Shown: positions 17,646-60,309 of the stretch, in pieces
Numbering within the stretch: position 1 is the stretch's first letter
Layout: each line of letters starts with the position of its first letter
DNA from: Capillimicrobium parvum
Lineage (GTDB): Bacteria; Actinomycetota; Thermoleophilia; Solirubrobacterales; Solirubrobacteraceae
Direction: 5' to 3'
Length of the DNA: 64,000 nucleotides
Assembly: GCF_021172045.1 (NCBI RefSeq)
Contig: NZ_CP087164.1
Location: forward strand, 4,774,001 to 4,838,000
Notes under the pieces: generated by a model
Seen by the model: only the letters and a program-made list of their open reading frames with translations
What the model was told of the DNA's origin: nothing
Databases searched by the model: none
Translations under genes and position numbers: made by a program

Positions 17646-18422
17646 TCAGTCTACGGCGCGGCGGACGAATCCTCGCACGCCGAGCCAGCCGAACGCCGCC
17701 AGCGACACGATGAGGCCGAGCGCGACCCACCCCGCCGCGAGGTGCGGGACGTCGGTGAGCGCGCCGCGCATCCCCTCGCTGACGTAGGTCATCGGGTTCA
17801 GCAGCGTCAGAACCTGGAACCAGCGCAGCGAGTCCAGCGCGTCCCACGGGTAGAAGGCCGCGCCCGTGAAGATCAGCGGCGTGAGGATGAGGCCGAAGGC
17901 GACCGTGATGCGGCTCGGCGGCACCGCGGTGCCGAGCACGAGGCCGATGACGGCTCCGGCCAGCGCCCCCGCGACGATCATCACGATCAGCGCGGGCCAG
18001 TTCACCCCCGACAGGTCGACGCCGCCCGGGAGGATCAGCTCGCCCAGCGGGATGATGAGCACGCCGCCGACGATGCCGCGCAGCGCGGCGATCAGCACCT
18101 TCTGGATCGCGACCCAGGCCACCGGGAGCGGGGCGAGCAGGCGGTCCTCGATCTCCTTGGTGAACGAGAACTCGATGACGAGCGGCAGGGCGACGTTCTG
18201 CAGCGCGGTGAGTACGAGCGTCAGCGCGATGACGCCCGGCAGCAACTGGGTGCCGTAGGAGCCCTGCGCCGCGCCGATCTCGGGCAGGACCCGGCCGAAG
18301 ACGAACAGGAAGAAGATCGGCTGCAGCAGCGCCTGGCTGAGGAACGCGACGAGGTCGCGGCGGAACGTGACGTAGAGATCGCGCTCGCACAGCGCGAGGA
18401 AGGCGACGACCGACGGGCTCAT
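17646..18422 (-). CDS. ABC-2 type transporter permease
   Basis: 258 aa, about six hydrophobic segments, ABC-2 membrane family (DrrB-like): [28 protein letters not shown] near the N-terminus and [17 protein letters not shown] late in the sequence. It pairs with the ATPase encoded upstream (18536-19459) as an exporter or membrane-component transporter. Located between map and rpmJ within the ribosomal cluster, same strand. Substrate unknown; drug or lipid export is typical of the family but not shown. Confidence 0.88.
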
Positions 18423-18431
18423 GACGGAATC

Positions 18432-18534
18432 GCCCGCAGGGATGGGGCCGCGGGGGATGAGGACCCGCAGGGTCTCACGACGGCATGCCCCGCAGGGATC
18501 GGGCCGCGGTGGGTGAGGACCCGCAGGGTCTCAC
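18432..18534. repeat. tandem duplicated palindromic element between exporter genes
   Basis: Two copies of a roughly 47-bp unit (18432-18478 and 18487-18534) fill the 113-bp gap between the ATPase stop and the permease start. Each unit ends in the same 20-bp sequence TGAGGACCCGCAGGGTCTCA (18458-18477 and 18514-18533), itself a near-palindrome with a GACCC/GGGTC stem. Related copies occur at 23944-23963 and 60285-60304. Confidence 0.75.
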
Positions 18535-23554: not shown

Positions 23555-23908
23555 CTAGATTGCCAGTCCGGCCTCGCGGGCGCCGTCTGCCACGGCCTTG
23601 ACGCGGCCGTGGTACTGGTAGCCGCCGCGGTCGAAGACCGCCTGTTCGATGCCGGCGGCCTTCGCGCGCTCGGCGATCAGGGCGCCGATGCGCGTCGCCT
23701 GCTCGGTGCGGTCGAGGTCGCGGACCCCGGCCTCGGTCCACTGCGCCGCAGCGATCGTGCGGCCGGCCTCGTCGTCGATGAGCTGGACGAACACGCCGCG
23801 GTTCGAGCGGAACACCGCCAGGCGCGGACGGGTCGCCGTGCCGACGACCTTCGCGCGCACGCGGCGGCGGCGCTTGAGGCGGCGCGCCTCCTTGGTGATG
23901 ACGGTCAT
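23555..23908 (-). CDS. rplR: 50S ribosomal protein L18
   Basis: 117 aa starting [20 protein letters not shown]; core [20 protein letters not shown] and C-terminal [24 protein letters not shown] are standard for this 5S rRNA-binding protein. 11 bp upstream of rpsE. Confidence 0.97.
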
Positions 23909-23943
23909 CGAGAAGCCTCCAACAGGGTCGAAGCGTTCGTGGA

Positions 23944-23963
23944 TGACGACCCGCAGGGTCTCA
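23944..23963. repeat. palindromic element overlapping the rplF stop
   Basis: TGACGACCCGCAGGGTCTCA differs by one base from the 20-bp element found twice at 18458-18533. On the minus strand its first three bases are the rplF TGA stop, and the GACCC/GGGTC stem falls just after it. Confidence 0.65.
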
Positions 23964-24494
23964 TGCCCTCTTGCCAACCTTCCGGGCGACGTACTCGCCC
24001 TCGTAGCGGATGCCCTTGCCCTTGTAGGGCTCCGGCGGCCGCTGCTTGCGGATGTTCGCCGCGACCTCGCCCACGAGCTGCTTGGAGATGCCCTTGACGA
24101 TGACGCGGGTCGGCGTGGGGACATCGAACTCGATGCCCTCCGGCGCCTTGATCGGCACGGGGTGCGAGTAGCCGAGCGCCATCTCCAGGTCGCGGCCCTT
24201 GAGCTGCGCCCGGTAGCCGACGCCCTGGATCTCCAGCGTCTTGGTGTAGCCGGCGGTCACGCCCTCGACCATGTTGGCCACGAGCGAGCGCGTCAGCCCG
24301 TGCAGGGCGCGGTGCTCGCCGCGGTCGGTCGGGCGCGAGACGCGCAGCTCCTCGCCCTCCTGCGCGACGGTGATGTCGCGGTGGATGCGCTCCTGGAGCT
24401 CGCCACGCGGGCCGTGGACCCGGACGACGTCGGGGTCGATGGTGACGGTCACCCCGCTCGGGACGGGGATCGGCTTGCGTCCGATGCGGCTCAT
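23961..24494 (-). CDS. rplF: 50S ribosomal protein L6
   Basis: 177 aa, two homologous domains. Starts [16 protein letters not shown]-terminal signature [24 protein letters not shown] intact. Standard length and position between rpsH and rplR. The stop is embedded in a repeated palindromic element. Confidence 0.98.
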
Positions 24495-27090: not shown

Positions 27091-27503
27091 CACACGTCCT
27101 CCCGGGTCACGAACTTCGTGCGCACGGGGAGCTTGTGCCCGGCGAGGCGCATGGCCTCACGGGCCAGCGGCTCGGGCACGCCGGCCAGCTCGAACATGAC
27201 GCGGCCCGGCTTGACCACGGCGACCCAGCCCTCGGGCGAGCCCTTGCCGGAGCCCATGCGGGTCTCGGCCGGCTTCTTCGTGTAGGGCTTGTCGGGGAAG
27301 ACGTTGATCCACACCTTGCCGCCGCGCTTGATCTTGCGGGTCATGGCGATACGAGCGGCCTCGATCTGGCGGTTCGTGAGCCAGCCGGCGTCAAGGGACT
27401 TGATGCCGTACTCGCCGAACTGCACGGTCGTCTGGCCGCGCGAGAGCCCGGCTCGGCGCCCGCGGTGCTGCTTGCGGTGCTTGACGCGCTTCGGGGAGAG
27501 CAC
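27090..27503 (-). CDS. rplP: 50S ribosomal protein L16
   Basis: 137 aa, GTG start at 27501-27503 overlapping the rpsC stop by one base. Starts [20 protein letters not shown]; contains [20 protein letters not shown] and the Arg81-region [14 protein letters not shown]. Standard length. Confidence 0.98.
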
Positions 27504-28603
27504 TACCGGCCACCCCCCTGCGGGCCGCCGCCACCGCCGCCGGGACCGCGCCCGCCGCCGCCACCGCCCGGACCACGCCCGCCGCCGCCACCGCCGCCGG
27601 GACCACGCCCGCCGCCGCCACCGCCGCCGGGACCACGCCCGCCGCCGCCGCCCGGACCACGTCCGCCGCCACCCTGGCCGCCACGTCCGCCGCCGCCGAA
27701 GCCACCGCCGCCGCCCTGGCCGCCGCGTCCTCCGCCGCCGCCGCCGAAGCCACCGCCGCCGCCCTGGCCGCCGCGCCCGCGGCCACCCTGGCCGCCCCGG
27801 CCGCCCGGACCGCCGGGACCGCGCCCGCCGCCGCCACCGCCGCCCGGACCGCCGCCCTGGCCGCCGCGCCCGCGCCCGCGCCCACGGCCGTCACGGCCGT
27901 CGCGGCGGTCGCGGCGGTCGCGATCCTGCTGGGGCGCCGGAGCGTCCATGTCGGTGAGGTCCATGCCGGTGAAGCCCTCGGGCATGATCTCGCCCTTGTT
28001 GATCCAGCACTTCACGCCGATGCGGCCGAACGTCGTGCGGGCCTCGTAGAAGCCGTAGTCGATGTCCGCGCGCAGCGTGTGCAGCGGGACGCGGCCGTCC
28101 GAGTACATCTCGGTGCGCGCCATCTCCGCGCCGCCGAGGCGGCCGGAGACCTGGATCTTGCAGCCCTTCGCGCCCGAGCGCATGGCGCTGGTCAGCGCGC
28201 GCTTCATGGCGCGCCGGAACGCGACGCGGTTCTGCAGCTGCTCGCCCACCGACTGGGCGACGAGCTTGGCGTCGAGCTCGGGACGCTTGATCTCGAGGAT
28301 GTTGACCTTGATGGACTTCTGCGTCATGCGATGCAGGTCCTTGCGCAGCGCGTCGACCTCGGAGCCGGACTTGCCGATCACGATGCCGGGCCGCGCGGTG
28401 TTGATGTTTACCTCAACCTCGTTGGCGTCCTTGCGGATCGTGATGTCGCTCAGGCCGGCGTGCGAGAGCTTGCCGACGATGTGGCGCCGGATGGCGACGT
28501 CCTCGGCGAGATAGTCCGCGAACTGGCGCTCGTTGAACCAGTTCGACTTCCAATCGTGGATGTAGCCGACGCGCAGCGCCTCGGGATGAACCTTCTGTCC
28601 CAT
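27503..28603 (-). CDS. rpsC: 30S ribosomal protein S3 with long Gly/Arg-rich C-terminal tail
   Basis: 366 aa against about 210-240 for most bacteria. Residues 1-217 are a full S3: KH domain with [17 protein letters not shown] and the C-terminal fold ending at [12 protein letters not shown]. After DMDAPAPQQ, a DR-rich linker leads into about 125 residues of Gly/Arg/Pro/Gln repeats ([23 protein letters not shown]). The tail is encoded by near-pure G/C repeats at 27506-27950. The frame is unbroken and ends 1 bp into rplP, so this is genuine coding sequence. The composition resembles eukaryotic RGG/GRP RNA-binding tails; function in the ribosome is unknown. Confidence 0.95.
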
Positions 28604-28606
28604 TTC

Positions 28607-29263
28607 CTATCCCTTCGGCGTCAGCGTGATCGTGAGGTGGCTGGTGCGCTTGCGGATGCGCGTCGCGCGGCCCATGGCGCGCGGCTGGAAGCGCTTGAGG
28701 GTCGGGCCCTCGTCCGCGAAGGCGGCCTCGACCTTGAGGTCCTCGCCCAGCAGCTCGTGGTTGTGCTCGGCGTTGGCCACCGCCGAGTTCAGCAGCTTGG
28801 CCCAGTCCTTGGCGACGGCGCGCGGCGTGAACGCGAGGATCGCGCGCGCCTCGTCGACGGACTTGCCGCGGATGTGGTCGCAGACGAGCCGCGCCTTGCG
28901 GGCGGACGTCCGCACGTACTTGGCCTGCGCGCGCACGACCGGCGGCCTGCCGTCGTCGTCCGCGCGAGCGGGCTTCGGCTGGGGCTTGGTGGCAGTGGCG
29001 GTGGCCGCGGGCGCCTCGGGCTCGGGCTCGGCCTCAGCGACCGGCTCGTCGGCCTCAGCGACCGGCTCGTCGGCCTCAGCGACCGGCTCGTCGGCCTCAG
29101 CGACCGGCTCGTCGGCCTCAGCGACGGGCTCGAAGGCCTCGACGGGCGCCTCCTCGACGGCCTCGACGGGCGCCTCCTCGGCGGCCTCGGGCTCGTCGAC
29201 GACAGGCGCCTCGGCCTCGACGTCGACCTCGGGCTGCTCGACCTTCCGCTCGTCCTCGGCCAT
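28607..29263 (-). CDS. rplV: 50S ribosomal protein L22 with acidic repeat N-terminal extension
   Basis: 218 aa against about 110-120. The L22 core starts near residue 110 ([20 protein letters not shown]) and ends [12 protein letters not shown]. Residues 1-107 are an acidic Glu/Ala/Pro/Val extension containing about five DEPVAEA heptads (about 46-79) and a short Lys/Pro link before the core. The start ATG overlaps rpsS stop-free junction as TGATG, supporting this start. In the ribosome L22 lines the exit tunnel with its N-terminus outside, so the extension probably projects from the subunit surface; that is inference. Confidence 0.95.
29031..29135. repeat. 21-bp tandem repeat inside rplV
   Basis: Five back-to-back 21-bp units starting at 29031, 29052, 29073, 29094 and 29115. 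The first four are identical and the last has diverged. Each encodes one DEPVAEA heptad of the L22 extension. Near-identity at DNA level indicates recent slippage or unequal crossing over, so copy number may vary between strains. Confidence 0.9.
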
Positions 29264-29535
29264 CAGCGCACCTTCCCCGAGCCGGCGTGGCCACGGTAGG
29301 TGCGGGTCGGCGCGAACTCGCCGAGCTTGTGGCCGACCATCGACTCCGACACGAACACCGGCACGTGCTTGCGGCCGTCGTGGACGGCGATCGTGTGCCC
29401 GACCATCTCCGGGAAGATCGTCGAGGTGCGCGACCAGGTCTTGACCATCGTCTTGTTGCCGGAGCTGTTCATGCCCTCGATGCGCGCCATCAGGCGCTCC
29501 TCGACGAACGGCCCCTTCTTGCTCGATCGGCTCAT
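29263..29535 (-). CDS. rpsS: 30S ribosomal protein S19
   Basis: 90 aa, starting [20 protein letters not shown]; core [30 protein letters not shown]. Standard length and place between rplB and rplV. Confidence 0.98.
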
Positions 29536-29538
29536 CGG

Positions 29539-30381
29539 TTAACGCTTGCCCTTCCCACGCCGCCGCCCGCGCACGATCAGGCGGTCGGATGCCTTGTTCT
29601 TCTTGCGGGTCCGGTACCCGAGCGTGGGAACGCCCCACGGGGTGACCGGGTGACGGCCCGGCGTGGTGGAGCCCTCGCCGCCGCCGTGCGGATGGTCCAC
29701 CGGGTTCATGGCCGTGCCGCGCGTCTGCGGGCGCACGCCCATGTGACGCTTGCGGCCCGCCTTGCCGATCGTGACGTTCTGGTGCTCGGCGTTGCCGATC
29801 GTCCCGACCGTCGCCCGGCACTGGTCGGCCACCATGCGCATCTCGCCCGACGGCAGGCGCAGCGTGGCCATGCCCCGCTCCTTCGCCATCAGCTGGACCC
29901 CGGCGCCGGCCGAGCGCGCCATCTGGCCGCCGCGGCCCGGCTGCAGCTCGACGTTGTGGACCACGGTGCCGGTCGGGATGCGCGCCAGGGCCAGGCAGTG
30001 GCCGACCGCGATGTCGGCGCCATCGCCGGACATCACCGTCGCGCCGACCTGCAGGCGCGCGGGCGCCAGGATGTAGCGCTTCTCGCCGTCGGCGTAGTGC
30101 AGCAGCGCGATGTAGGCCGTCCGGTTCGGGTCGTACTCGATCGCGGCGACCTTGGCCGGCACGCCGTCCTTGCGGCGCTTGAAGTCGATCCGGCGATACA
30201 GGCGCTTGGCCCCGCCACCGCGGTGGCGCGAGGTCTTGCGGCCGTAGCTGTTGCGCCCGCCGGACTTCGTCAGCCCCTCGATGAGGGACTTCTCCGGGTC
30301 GGTCTTCGTGATCTCCGCGAAGTCGGGATACGTCGAGAAGCGACGTCCCGGGCTGGTCGGCTTGGGCTTGCGAATCGGCAT
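29539..30381 (-). CDS. rplB: 50S ribosomal protein L2
   Basis: 280 aa. Near the C-terminus the catalytic-centre-proximal segment [12 protein letters not shown] is intact. N-terminal [22 protein letters not shown]. 3 bp after rplW. Largest primary binder near the peptidyl-transferase centre. Confidence 0.98.
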
Positions 30382-30384
30382 GGA

Positions 30385-30687
30385 CTAGCTCTCCTCGAGC
30401 CCCGCGAGGCCCTGGAAGATCGGGATGGTGTCGCCCGGGCGGATCTGGACGATCGCCTTCTTCCACGAGCGCGTCCGGCCGGACGTGTAGCCACGGCGCT
30501 TGGGCTTGCTCTTGACGGACATGGTGCGGACGTCGACCACCTTGACGTCGAAGAGGTCCTCGACGGCCTGGCGGATCTGCGTCTTGTGCGCGTCCGGGTG
30601 GACGCGGAAGGTGTACTTGTCGACCGCGGCGAGCACGTAGCTCTTCTCGCTGACGACCGGCCGGATGATCACCTGGGCGGGATTCAT
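30385..30687 (-). CDS. rplW: 50S ribosomal protein L23
   Basis: 100 aa from the ATG at 30687 ([20 protein letters not shown]). Contains [22 protein letters not shown]. Overlaps the rplD stop by 4 bp. Forms the docking site for trigger factor and SRP at the tunnel exit. Confidence 0.97.
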
Positions 30688-31298
30688 GCGGCACGCTCCG
30701 TCAGCTGGTCGAGTGCGGTGCGCGACGCGAGCACCGCGGAGGCGCGCACGAGGTCGGACACGCCGACCCCGTCGGCGGGGAGCACCGACACCCGGTCGAG
30801 GTTGCGGAACGACAGGGCCGCCTGGGCCTCGTCGTCGGTCAGGATCACCAGCACGCCCTTGGGCTGGCCCCAGTCGGCCAGGAGCCCGGCGGCCTGCTTG
30901 GTCGACGGCGTCTGCAGGAACGGAGCGGGGTCCAGGACCGCCAGAGACTCGCGCCCGGCGTGCAGCGACAGCGCGCTGCGCAGCGCGGCGCGGCGCTCCT
31001 TGCGGTTGACCTTGAAGGTGTAGTGGCGCGGCTGTGGGCCGAAGACGGTGCCGCCGCCGGTCCACAGCGGGTTGCGGCTCGAGCCGGCACGGGCGCGTCC
31101 GGTGCCCTTCTGGCGCCACGGCTTGGCCCCGCCGCCGCGGACCTCGCCGCGCGTCTTGGTCGAGTGCGTGCCCTGGCGGCGCGCGGCCTGCTCGGCGCGC
31201 ACCGTCTCGTGGACGAGCGGCACGTGGAACTCGGCGGTGAACGCCTTGTCGTCGAGCGCGACCTTCTCGGTCGCCCCCAGGATCGGAGCATCAGCCAT
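30684..31298 (-). CDS. rplD: 50S ribosomal protein L4
   Basis: 204 aa. Tunnel-loop region [33 protein letters not shown] is complete. Overlaps rplC by 8 bp and rplW by 4 bp. L4 is an autoregulator of the S10 operon in some bacteria. Confidence 0.97.
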
Positions 31299-37343: not shown

Positions 37344-38024
37344 ATGCTCTCCCCGCTGGACTCCCTTCGGCTCCCGGTCCGCCTGGCCGACGAGCTGAGC
37401 CGCATCGCCGGGACCGTCGTCGAGCTGCCGCGGATCGCGCAGCTCATGCTCGACCTGCGGACCGAGATCCGCGGCATGCGCTCCGACCTCGCCGAGGTAC
37501 CCGGCCGGATCCGCAGCCTCGACGAGAGCATGTCCACCCTGCCCGGGCAGGTCGAGCGCCTGCGCGGCGACATCGGCGACCTGGGCGAGGAGATCACCGG
37601 CATGCGCGCCGACCTGTCGTCGATGCCGGGCGAGGTGAGCGGCATGCGCGCCGACCTGTCCTCCATGCCGGGCGAGGTGAGCGGCATGCGCGCCGACCTG
37701 TCCTCCATGCCCGGCGAGGTCAAGGGACTTCACGAGGACCTGGGGGTGCTGCCGGAGGAGCTGCGCGGCATGCGACGGGATCTCGCGGGCACGCCCGAGC
37801 GCATCCTGCTCATGCAGAACGAGCTCGACGGTCTGACGGACACGCTCGTCCGCGTCGCCCAGGTCCTCGAGGACACGCGCGACGGCATCAAACCGCTCGA
37901 CGAGGACATGGCCTCGGTCGAGCGCGCCGTCCAGGAGCTTCCGCCGAAGCTCGACGAGCTGCGCGCCCACCTCGATGGCATGCGGACCGATCTGAGCGGC
38001 CTGCCGTTCGTGTCGAAGTCCTAG
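37344..38024 (+). CDS. repeat-rich helical (coiled-coil/phasin-like) protein
   Basis: 226 aa, divergent from rpsL across an 80-bp spacer. No signal peptide or membrane segment. Almost the whole protein is amphipathic helix with a loose 14-residue period; three consecutive near-identical units read [14 protein letters not shown] (about residues 86-127), and weaker ones flank them ([39 protein letters not shown]). Pattern resembles apolipoprotein-, phasin- or tropomyosin-like surface-binding helices. Function unknown; a scaffold or granule-coating role is only a guess. Confidence 0.75.
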
Positions 38025-59523: not shown

Positions 59524-60249
59524 TCAGGCGGATGCCGGCGCAGACTCCTCGACGATGTCACGCGTGCGGCTGGGGTCCACCTTCACGCCGGGCCCCATGG
59601 TGGAGGCGAGGGTGATCGTGCGGATGTAGCGACCCTTCGCGGCCGACGGCTTGGCGCGGATGATCTCGTCGATCACCGCGGCGTAGTTCTCGAGCAGCGC
59701 CCGGTCCTCGAAGGACGTCTTGCCGATGTTGAGGTGCACGATGGCGGTGCGGTCGGTGCGGTACTCGACCTTGCCGGCCTTCGACTCCTCGACGGCCTTG
59801 CGGACGTCCATCGTGACCGTGCCGACCTTCGGGTTGGGCATCTTGCCCTGCGGCCCGAGGATGCGGCCCAGCCGGCCGACGACCGGCATGAGGTCCGGCG
59901 TGGCGATGGCGATGTCGAAGTCGGTGAAGCCGTCCTCGATCCGCTTGGCGAGGTCCTCGGCGCCCACGACGTCGGCGCCGGCCTCCTCGGCCTCCTGGGC
60001 CTTGGCCCCCTGGGCGAAGACGGCGACCTTGACCTCCTTGCCGAGGCCGTTGGGCAGGCCGATCGTCCCGCGCAGCTGCTCGTCGGCGTGGCGGACGTTC
60101 AGGCCGGTGCGGATGTGCAGCTCGACCGACTCGTCGAACTTCGCCCGCTTGAGGTCCTTGACGAGCTTGATCGCCTCGGCGGGCGCGTACTCGCGCTCGC
60201 GGTCGACCTGGCCCTTGGACTCGACGTAGGTCTTCCCGTGCTTGCTCAC
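59524..60249 (-). CDS. rplA: 50S ribosomal protein L1
   Basis: 241 aa. Signature [20 protein letters not shown] and [16 protein letters not shown]-terminal [20 protein letters not shown]1 stalk protein and likely translational autoregulator of its operon. 65-bp gap to rplJ could hold an L10-type leader but no clear structure is seen. Confidence 0.98.
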
Positions 60250-60284
60250 GATGCCATCTCCATCAGGGTCGGAGCCGTTGTGTG

Positions 60285-60304
60285 TGAGAACCCGCGGGGT
60301 TCCA
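60285..60304. repeat. copy of the palindromic element between rplK and rplA
   Basis: TGAGAACCCGCGGGGTTCCA in the 60-bp rplK-rplA gap is a diverged copy of the 20-bp element at 18458, 18514 and 23944, keeping the stem with compensating changes (AACCC/GGGTT for GACCC/GGGTC). Confidence 0.55.
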
Positions 60305-60309
60305 TCTCG

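What the first reader, a model, noticed from the sequence alone, without database searches (positions are those of the whole stretch)
18432..18534. Family of 20-bp palindromic elements inside ribosomal operons
TGAGGACCCGCAGGGTCTCA occurs twice in a tandem 47-bp duplication here, once with one mismatch touching the rplF stop (23944), and once with compensating stem changes between rplK and rplA (60285). All lie in intergenic gaps at 3' ends of genes on the minus strand. Compensatory changes point to selection for a hairpin in RNA. Could be a REP-like element or an operon-internal mRNA stabiliser.
Basis: seen in the sequence. Interest (0 to 1): 0.55.

Follow-up and report, generated by a model that had tools for sequence, protein, structure and literature searches.

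The report
Start-codon-homing 56-base repeat elements
The repeated palindrome is one end of a 56-base element found, singly or in tandem, at the start codons of dozens of operon genes in a soil bacterium, where it keeps the gene-to-gene relay intact by carrying a tiny reading frame and a five-base segment that usually matches the start codon it sits next to.

Summary
The 20-base palindrome is the left end of a 56-base unit. The window has four units (two in tandem at 18423-18534, one at 23909-23964, one at 60250-60305); the whole genome (Solirubrobacteraceae, 5.95 Mb) has 70 units at E<=0.002 in 51 arrays. Downstream genes lie in the unit's sense: 47 of 51 have a Pfam match. In 38 of 51 arrays the longest upstream frame stops at the unit's own TGA. 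The typical unit is a stop-free 19-codon frame ending in NTGA on the next start codon. Related genomes show empty sites: rplF-rplR overlap by ATGA in at least 16 of 29, while three carry exactly 56 extra bases. This is the layout of mycobacterial MIRUs. What looks new is the pairing: a short hairpin (5-9 x 13-17) followed directly by a segment (18-22) complementary to the downstream start region (57-61), host bases included; 39 of 51 match 5 of 5. The geometry resembles the hairpin-plus-guide of IS200/IS605 elements, but the genome has no Y1 transposase hit. REP membership is not supported. New variant of a known kind; the guide reading is inferred.

The parts
18479..18534 (-). Unit 1 of tandem array (position 1 = 18534), between an ABC_tran gene and an ABC2_membrane gene; micro-ORF VRPCGSSPTAARSLRGMPS*
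   Evidence: genes by Pfam
18423..18478 (-). Unit 2 of tandem array; micro-[22 protein letters not shown] ends in TGA overlapping the downstream ATG (18422-18420)
   Evidence: differs from unit 1 at 7 of 57 positions, among them the pair 22/57 (C-G to T-A)
18518..18530 (-). Unit 1, hairpin P1 (unit positions 5-17)
   Evidence: family-level result
18513..18517 (-). Unit 1, guide-like segment (positions 18-22, CTCAC), complementary to 18474-18478
   Evidence: internal unit, 5 of 5
18457..18461 (-). Unit 2, guide-like segment (18-22, CTCAT), complementary to ATGAG at 18418-18422
18418..18422 (-). Start codon of the downstream permease gene plus 2 nt, partner of the unit 2 segment
23909..23964 (-). 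Single unit between rplF and rplR; the rplF stop is the unit's TGA (23963-23961); micro-[22 protein letters not shown]
   Evidence: genes by Pfam
23943..23947 (-). Guide-like segment GTCAT, complementary to ATGAC (rplR start, 23904-23908)
23904..23908 (-). rplR start codon plus 2 nt (ATGAC), pairing partner
60250..60305 (-). Single unit between rplK and rplA (rplK stop TAA begins 7 nt before the unit); micro-[23 protein letters not shown]5-T17 replaces G5-C17
   Evidence: genes by Pfam
60284..60288 (-). Guide-like segment CTCAC, complementary to GTGAG (rplA start, 60245-60249)

Best explanation
A 56-base non-autonomous mobile element, MIRU-like in niche, that inserts at the start codon of an operon gene, typically where it overlaps the previous gene's stop codon (NTGA). 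Shown by sequence: units are absent at the same junctions in relatives; at asd the left N is the host's and the right N came with the unit; the upstream gene then stops at the unit's TGA, a 19-codon frame with a Shine-Dalgarno-like motif follows, and its TGA overlaps the downstream start. Because 56 = 3x19-1 and the frame is stop-free, single or tandem units keep the stop/start relay. Inferred: ribosomes pass the relay by termination-reinitiation, so insertion costs little. Inferred more weakly (about 0.4): hairpin P1 plus segment 18-22 act as an IS200/IS605-like hairpin and guide on the strand opposite to the mRNA, choosing the target by base pairing; the mobilising enzyme is unknown.
For: 70 units at E<=0.002 in 51 arrays. 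Longest upstream frame stops at unit positions 2-4 in 38 of 51 arrays and up to 54 bases before the unit in the other 13; 47 of 51 downstream proteins match Pfam in the unit's sense. Reading frame: 0 stops in 672 codons over 42 units, 16 of 714 and 4 of 714 in the other frames; early stop in 1 of 42 against 9.7 in spacer shuffles. SD-like motif in 30 of 42 against 4.1. Empty sites: rplF-rplR 4-nt overlap in at least 16 of 29 genomes, +56 in 3, 10 other or misaligned; no unit at rplK-rplA in 26 others; asd: same-genus G001 and G003 read tcATGAGG where G000 reads tcATGAGACC...ATCGTGAGG. Pairing: 22-57 in 48 of 51 (shuffle mean 28.1), 18-61 in 44 (29.2), 21-58 in 46 (36.1), 19-60 in 43 (34.9), no shuffle of 20000 as high; 47 two-sided-change cells against 8.8; RNAalifold picks exactly P1+P2. 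G328 and G369 units keep 56 nt, hairpin and matching segment with other loop sizes.
Against: No Y1_Tnp hit in five of six carrier genomes (G000, G002, G012, G058, G369; G328 has one); only that family was tried. Only rplF-rplR, rplK-rplA, asd and, less clearly, carA gave usable empty sites; Mpg and SufS did not. Movement was never seen. Spacers differ strongly between sites (mean 18.7 of 34 identical), so recent transposition is not evident. The split into GTG and ATG types inflates the 22-57 covariation, and the shuffles do not remove relatedness. 12 of 51 last units are not 5 of 5 (5 of them 4 of 5), and 27% of mismatched segment/target combinations are 5 of 5 anyway. Two of 7 G058 units (GTGAA) mismatch. 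Translation is unproven.
Confidence: 0.75

Rival explanations
1. Translational gate: the pairing 18-22 x 57-61 is kept by selection in the mRNA. Once a ribosome sits on the micro-ORF start and opens the local hairpin, 18-22 closes on the next start codon, so the downstream gene is translated only by ribosomes that have read the micro-ORF.
For: The two window tandem units differ at 7 positions, two of which are exactly the pair 22/57. rplF-rplR units of G000 (G18-C61) and G002 (C18-G61) differ by a compensatory change at the same site. Folding 18-61 alone leaves the start unpaired 0.13 against 0.34 with 18-22 shuffled.
Against: In the whole 61-mer RNA P2 is not favoured (mean pair probability 0.14; local extension 0.40). 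Complementarity persists where no start codon is left (CACCC/GGGTG in 100814 and 3176553; ATCGCC/GGCGAT one register over in 2757088, my reading). That the two rplF-rplR units are one shared insertion is weakly supported: G000's is the best spacer match of G002's (25 of 34), but not the reverse (27 of 34 to another unit). 4 of 19 internal tandem junctions are not 5 of 5.
Confidence: 0.27
2. REP/BIME elements mobilised by a TnpA-REP (RAYT) protein.
For: Short imperfect palindrome, high copy number in operon gaps; on the strand opposite the mRNA a GTGAG-like motif lies 5' of the hairpin, as GTAG does in REPs (PMC8266576, passages).
Against: No Y1_Tnp hit in the own genome; one orientation relative to genes; the unit is a reading frame of nearly fixed length.
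Confidence: 0.07
3. A conserved micropeptide or leader peptide is the selected product, and the repeat is its gene.
For: Open 19-codon frame in G000, G058 and G328 units; (M/V)RP(C/R)GSS start common in G000.
Against: In G328 and G369 the loop size differs, shifting the frame, so the peptide after RP changes while hairpin, matching segment and 56-nt length stay; rplK-rplA changes G5-C17 to A5-T17 with amino-acid changes.
Confidence: 0.05
4. An mRNA-stabilising or terminator hairpin at 3' ends.
For: GC-rich hairpin just after or over stop codons.
Against: Hairpin lies inside the micro-ORF, inside ribosomal and nuo operons; it does not explain the 57-61 matching or the 56-nt length.
Confidence: 0.04

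Closest known systems
Mycobacterial interspersed repetitive units (MIRU; Supply et al. 1997, not seen; described in the review PMC12548453, passages seen)
   Same: Short repeats that appear mobile, insert at start codons and carry an ORF coupled to the gene by -4 spacing; unit lengths 77 and 53 bp (PMC2453075, passages) are, like 56, 2 modulo 3.
   Different: Another lineage (Solirubrobacterales), nearly fixed 56-nt length, and a hairpin plus start-matching segment that covaries with the site. Whether MIRUs carry such a segment was not tested.
IS200/IS605 elements (IS608) hairpin and guide (PMC5934647, passages)
   Same: On the strand opposite the mRNA: guide directly 5' of a hairpin, complementary to a flanking target that is retained.
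   Different: One hairpin, not two; 34 nt between target and guide; no transposase gene in the unit and no Y1_Tnp hit in the genome.
REP elements (TnpA-REP; PMC8266576, passages)
   Same: Short palindromes in operon gaps, motif 5' of the hairpin on one strand.
   Different: GTGAG-like rather than GTAG, no inverted pairs seen, no Y1_Tnp hit, unit is an open frame.
Rickettsia palindromic elements (review PMC10969869, passages)
   Same: Elements with an open frame that fuse in frame with host genes; four units here lie in one open frame with a downstream Pfam domain (CheR, GATase, MPG, aminotransferase V).
   Different: Here fusion is the exception and N-terminal only.

Membership tests
MIRU | Units between genes of operons, single or tandem, in the sense of the genes | tested here: met
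   51 arrays of 1-4 units; upstream open frame on the unit's strand in all 51; downstream Pfam match in sense in 47 of 51. Operon transcription itself not tested
MIRU | Internal small ORF coupled to the downstream gene by a -4 overlap | tested here: met
   TGA at 58-60 in 42 of the 49 G000 array-end units aligned, 0 stops in 672 codons; coupling itself inferred
MIRU | Insertion at start codons, shown by empty sites | tested here: met
   rplF-rplR, rplK-rplA, asd; carA less clear
MIRU | Sequence homology with mycobacterial MIRUs | not tested
   No MIRU sequence was fetched
REP / BIME | TnpA-REP (Y1, PF01797) in the genome | tested here: not met
   0 matches in G000, a single-contig genome, 96% complete by the tool's estimate
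REP / BIME | Copies paired in opposite orientation (BIMEs), no fixed sense to genes | tested here: not met
   Tandem copies are all direct; one sense to downstream genes
IS200/IS605 non-autonomous element | Guide 5' of a hairpin, complementary to the target flank | tested here: met
   18-22 x 57-61 covariation; complementarity only, no cleavage shown
IS200/IS605 non-autonomous element | Hairpins at both ends | tested here: not met
   RNAalifold gives one hairpin plus P2
IS200/IS605 non-autonomous element | Y1 transposase in the same genome | tested here: not met
   (own genome)
IS200/IS605 non-autonomous element | Insertion beside the target without target duplication | tested here: inconclusive
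   asd fits (host N1, element N57), but the shared TGAG hides the exact boundary
Rfam families | Match to a described RNA family | tested here: not met
   0 gathering-level matches in the window

The most novel reading that the evidence does not exclude
A minimal (56-nt) guide-programmed mobile element: a five-base segment beside its single hairpin chooses the start codon it inserts at by base pairing, and its length and reading frame make the insertion nearly invisible to operon translation. The different segments found (CTCAC, GTCAT, ATCAC, GACAT, CTCAG, CACCC) then record the targets taken, and MIRUs may work the same way.
Probability: 0.38. Interest if true: 0.82.

Novelty: new variant of a known kind. 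Interest (0 to 1): 0.62.

Why it matters
How MIRU-type repeats move, and why they sit exactly on stop/start overlaps, is open as far as I know (recalled, not searched exhaustively). Here a family with many copies and natural base changes shows which bases are tied together: the element's 18-22 and the start region it abuts, host bases included. That gives a testable rule for target choice and would explain how a repeat can enter ribosomal, nuo and recF operons without breaking them. It also warns annotators: dozens of 19-codon ORFs and some odd N-terminal extensions in these genomes are repeat-derived.

Tried and rejected
One search used a pattern I had built with one base too many; it found one unrelated site (and one control match) and was dropped. 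REP reading: rejected on orientation, open frame and missing Y1_Tnp. Conserved peptide: rejected because other subfamilies keep length and hairpin with another peptide. Pure mRNA-folding account of the long pairing: weakened, since the local hairpin is the favoured RNA fold. Streptomyces canus and Clostridia matches of the core pattern were read and show no 56-nt unit: taken as chance. Viral contigs: 0 exact matches. Of 19 genomes with a match, 16 had only E above 1e-6; I treated these as chance except G012, whose match lies exactly at rplF-rplR.

Rows dropped before counts: alignment A2 holds 49 of 51 G000 arrays (left out: 4229113, one base longer; 4515255, shorter), 2 of the G002 units, and 7 of the 11 G058 matches (one at a contig edge and weak ones left out). 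Of 11 G328 matches, 10 had loci and were aligned apart. Of 30 loci each for asd and carA I read 14 each; G002's asd starts beyond its contig. One search scored only 13 candidates per genome, so its counts are lower bounds. One search used all 51 arrays in fixed register.

On the second check I corrected: the control (0, not 1), the claim that the G000 and G002 rplF-rplR spacers are mutual best matches (not so; the translational-gate rival went from 0.30 to 0.27), and I added Pfam searches to support gene names and orientation.

Full report
What is there. On the minus strand, in the sense of the genes, 21 copies align without a gap over 60 columns: (G/A)TGAGACCCTGCGGGTCCTCAC, about 34 variable bases with a GGGAGG-like motif, then (G/A)TGA. 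Neighbouring tandem matches are 56 apart throughout. The own genome (5.95 Mb, one contig) holds 59 matches to the 20-mer with at most 3 mismatches, against 0 for the reversed control, and 70 units at E<=0.002 with the model, which group into 51 arrays of one to four units. Of the 60 other genomes, two have strong copies (G002, same genus; G058, another family of the order); of 399 genomes of the class, own included, five do at E<=1e-6 (adding G328 and G369, lower bounds). A pattern scan of named genomes found the core in a Solirubrobacteraceae MAG whose contig lengths equal those of G002, which places the window in that family.

Reading frame. From the unit's first base an NTG opens a 19-codon frame that typically ends in TGA at 58-60, overlapping the next start codon: 42 of the 49 G000 array-end units aligned have that TGA, and a further one ends in TGATG. 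In the 42 there is no stop in 672 codons of this frame, against 16 of 714 and 4 of 714 in the other two; counting the last codon too, 1 of 42 stops early against 9.7 in spacer shuffles (1 of 2000 shuffles as low). A Shine-Dalgarno-like motif sits at 41-53 in 30 of 42 (shuffle mean 4.1). The longest upstream frame on the unit's strand stops at the unit's own TGA (2-4) in 38 of 51 arrays and up to 54 bases before the unit in the other 13. Downstream, 47 of 51 proteins read from the predicted start (or, in fused cases, from the unit's own start) match Pfam at E<=1e-5: among them RecF/SMC, FtsW, flagellin, FliM, NuoK, NuoH, NuoD, aspartate-semialdehyde dehydrogenase, CarA, RNase J, RRF, HisS, TrpA, IspF (YgbB), L18 and L1; four gave none.

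Empty sites. At rplF-rplR at least 16 of 29 genomes, two of them of the same genus, have the plain 4-nt overlap ATGA; G000, G002 and G012 have exactly 56 more bases; the remaining 10 have other spacings or a shifted alignment start. At rplK-rplA none of the other 26 genomes with a match has a unit, though G043 has an unrelated 67-base gap. At asd the same-genus genomes G001 and G003 read tcATGAGG, G000 reads tcATGAGACC...ATCGTGAGG: the left N is the host's, the right N (G) arrived with the unit. carA fits less clearly. Mpg and SufS, both with fused units, could not be decided.

Structure. The palindrome suggests 1-9 pairing with 13-22. Measured on all 51 arrays, the outer pair 1-22 holds in 36 (shuffle mean 26.8; 37 of 20000 shuffles as high), but 22-57 holds in 48 (28.1), 21-58 in 46 (36.1), 19-60 in 43 (34.9) and 18-61 in 44 (29.2), each beyond all 20000 shuffles; 20-59 is nearly invariant (48; 47.1). 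On 58 units from three genomes P1 (5-9 x 13-17) plus P2 (18-22 x 57-61) forms 95.3% of cells with 47 two-sided changes (shuffles 8.8; slid versions 33.6-47.4% of cells), the palindrome 92.3% and 23 (7.2), and RNAalifold chooses exactly P1+P2 unasked. Examples: ATGAC with GTCAT, GTGAT with ATCAC, CTGAG with CTCAG, ATGTC with GACAT, GGGTG with CACCC. All five bases match in 39 of 51 last units and four in 5 more; exchanging segments and targets between sites still gives 5 of 5 in 695 of 2550, since most sites share GTGAG. The shuffles do not remove relatedness, and there are two broad types (ATG, GTG), so the 22-57 figure is partly shared history; the 18-61 changes and single cases are less so. 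Base 61 can be a host base: in the IspF gene it lies in codon 2, inside the YgbB match that starts at residue 2, and A18 fits its T61. Of 19 internal tandem junctions 15 are 5 of 5; in two arrays the misfit is at 18, where most of the internal units carry the base of the last unit, which fits the host. In G328 the loop has six bases (P1 4 of 4 in 10 of 10, P2 5 of 5 in 9 of 10) and in the one G369 unit four, yet the unit is still 56 long; the peptide after the first residues differs.

How it works. Shown: 56-base units present or absent at start codons; a stop-free relay frame; a hairpin followed by a segment matched to the start region. Inferred: ribosomes step through the relay, so the insertion is tolerated. 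For the match I weigh two readings. Read on the opposite strand, the segment lies immediately 5' of the hairpin and matches the flank, the arrangement by which IS608 picks its target (PMC5934647, passages). It would also cover the cases with no start codon left, and the poor stability of this pairing in plain RNA (mean probability 0.14). Against it stands the lack of a Y1_Tnp hit in G000, G002, G012, G058 and G369, several of them incomplete (G328 has one). The other reading, a translational gate, draws support from the compensatory difference between the two window units (22/57) and between G000 and G002 at rplF-rplR, whose shared origin is only weakly supported. Both may hold in part.

Known relatives. 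The niche and the coupling are those of MIRUs as described in a 2025 review (PMC12548453, passages), and MIRU lengths of 77 and 53 (PMC2453075, passages) obey the same modulo-3 rule. My literature searches (open-access full texts, listings only apart from the passages named) showed no description of such an element in Solirubrobacterales or of start-matching in MIRUs; subscription papers were not covered. Hence: new variant of a known kind.

Noticed in passing
L101 (4777-5715), L107 (1512-2231), L103 (1589-2230), L112 (1554-2543); L109 (1517-2506): Units that have lost the terminal TGA and lie in one open frame with the downstream gene, giving CheR, GATase, MPG and aminotransferase-V (SufS-like) proteins a repeat-derived N-terminal extension (Pfam); L109 reads like FlhF to me but has no Pfam match.
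   Followed up: partly
L014 (2252231 array) and L098 (17400 array): Tandem arrays whose neighbouring units differ at 19-20 of 57 positions, as if a second element had landed beside an older one, in contrast to arrays of identical copies.
   Followed up: no
window 27479-27930: Dense short-period direct repeats overlapping the ORF at 27503-28603 (minus), perhaps a low-complexity protein tail.
   Followed up: no
window 28986-29195: 21-bp tandem repeats overlapping the ORF at 28607-30694 (minus).
   Followed up: no
window 37464-37715: Four 42-bp repeats (74-100% to the reference copy), three of them (37590-37715) in direct tandem.
   Followed up: no
window 1-64000: No Rfam family reaches its gathering score although the window holds ribosomal-protein genes.
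   Followed up: no
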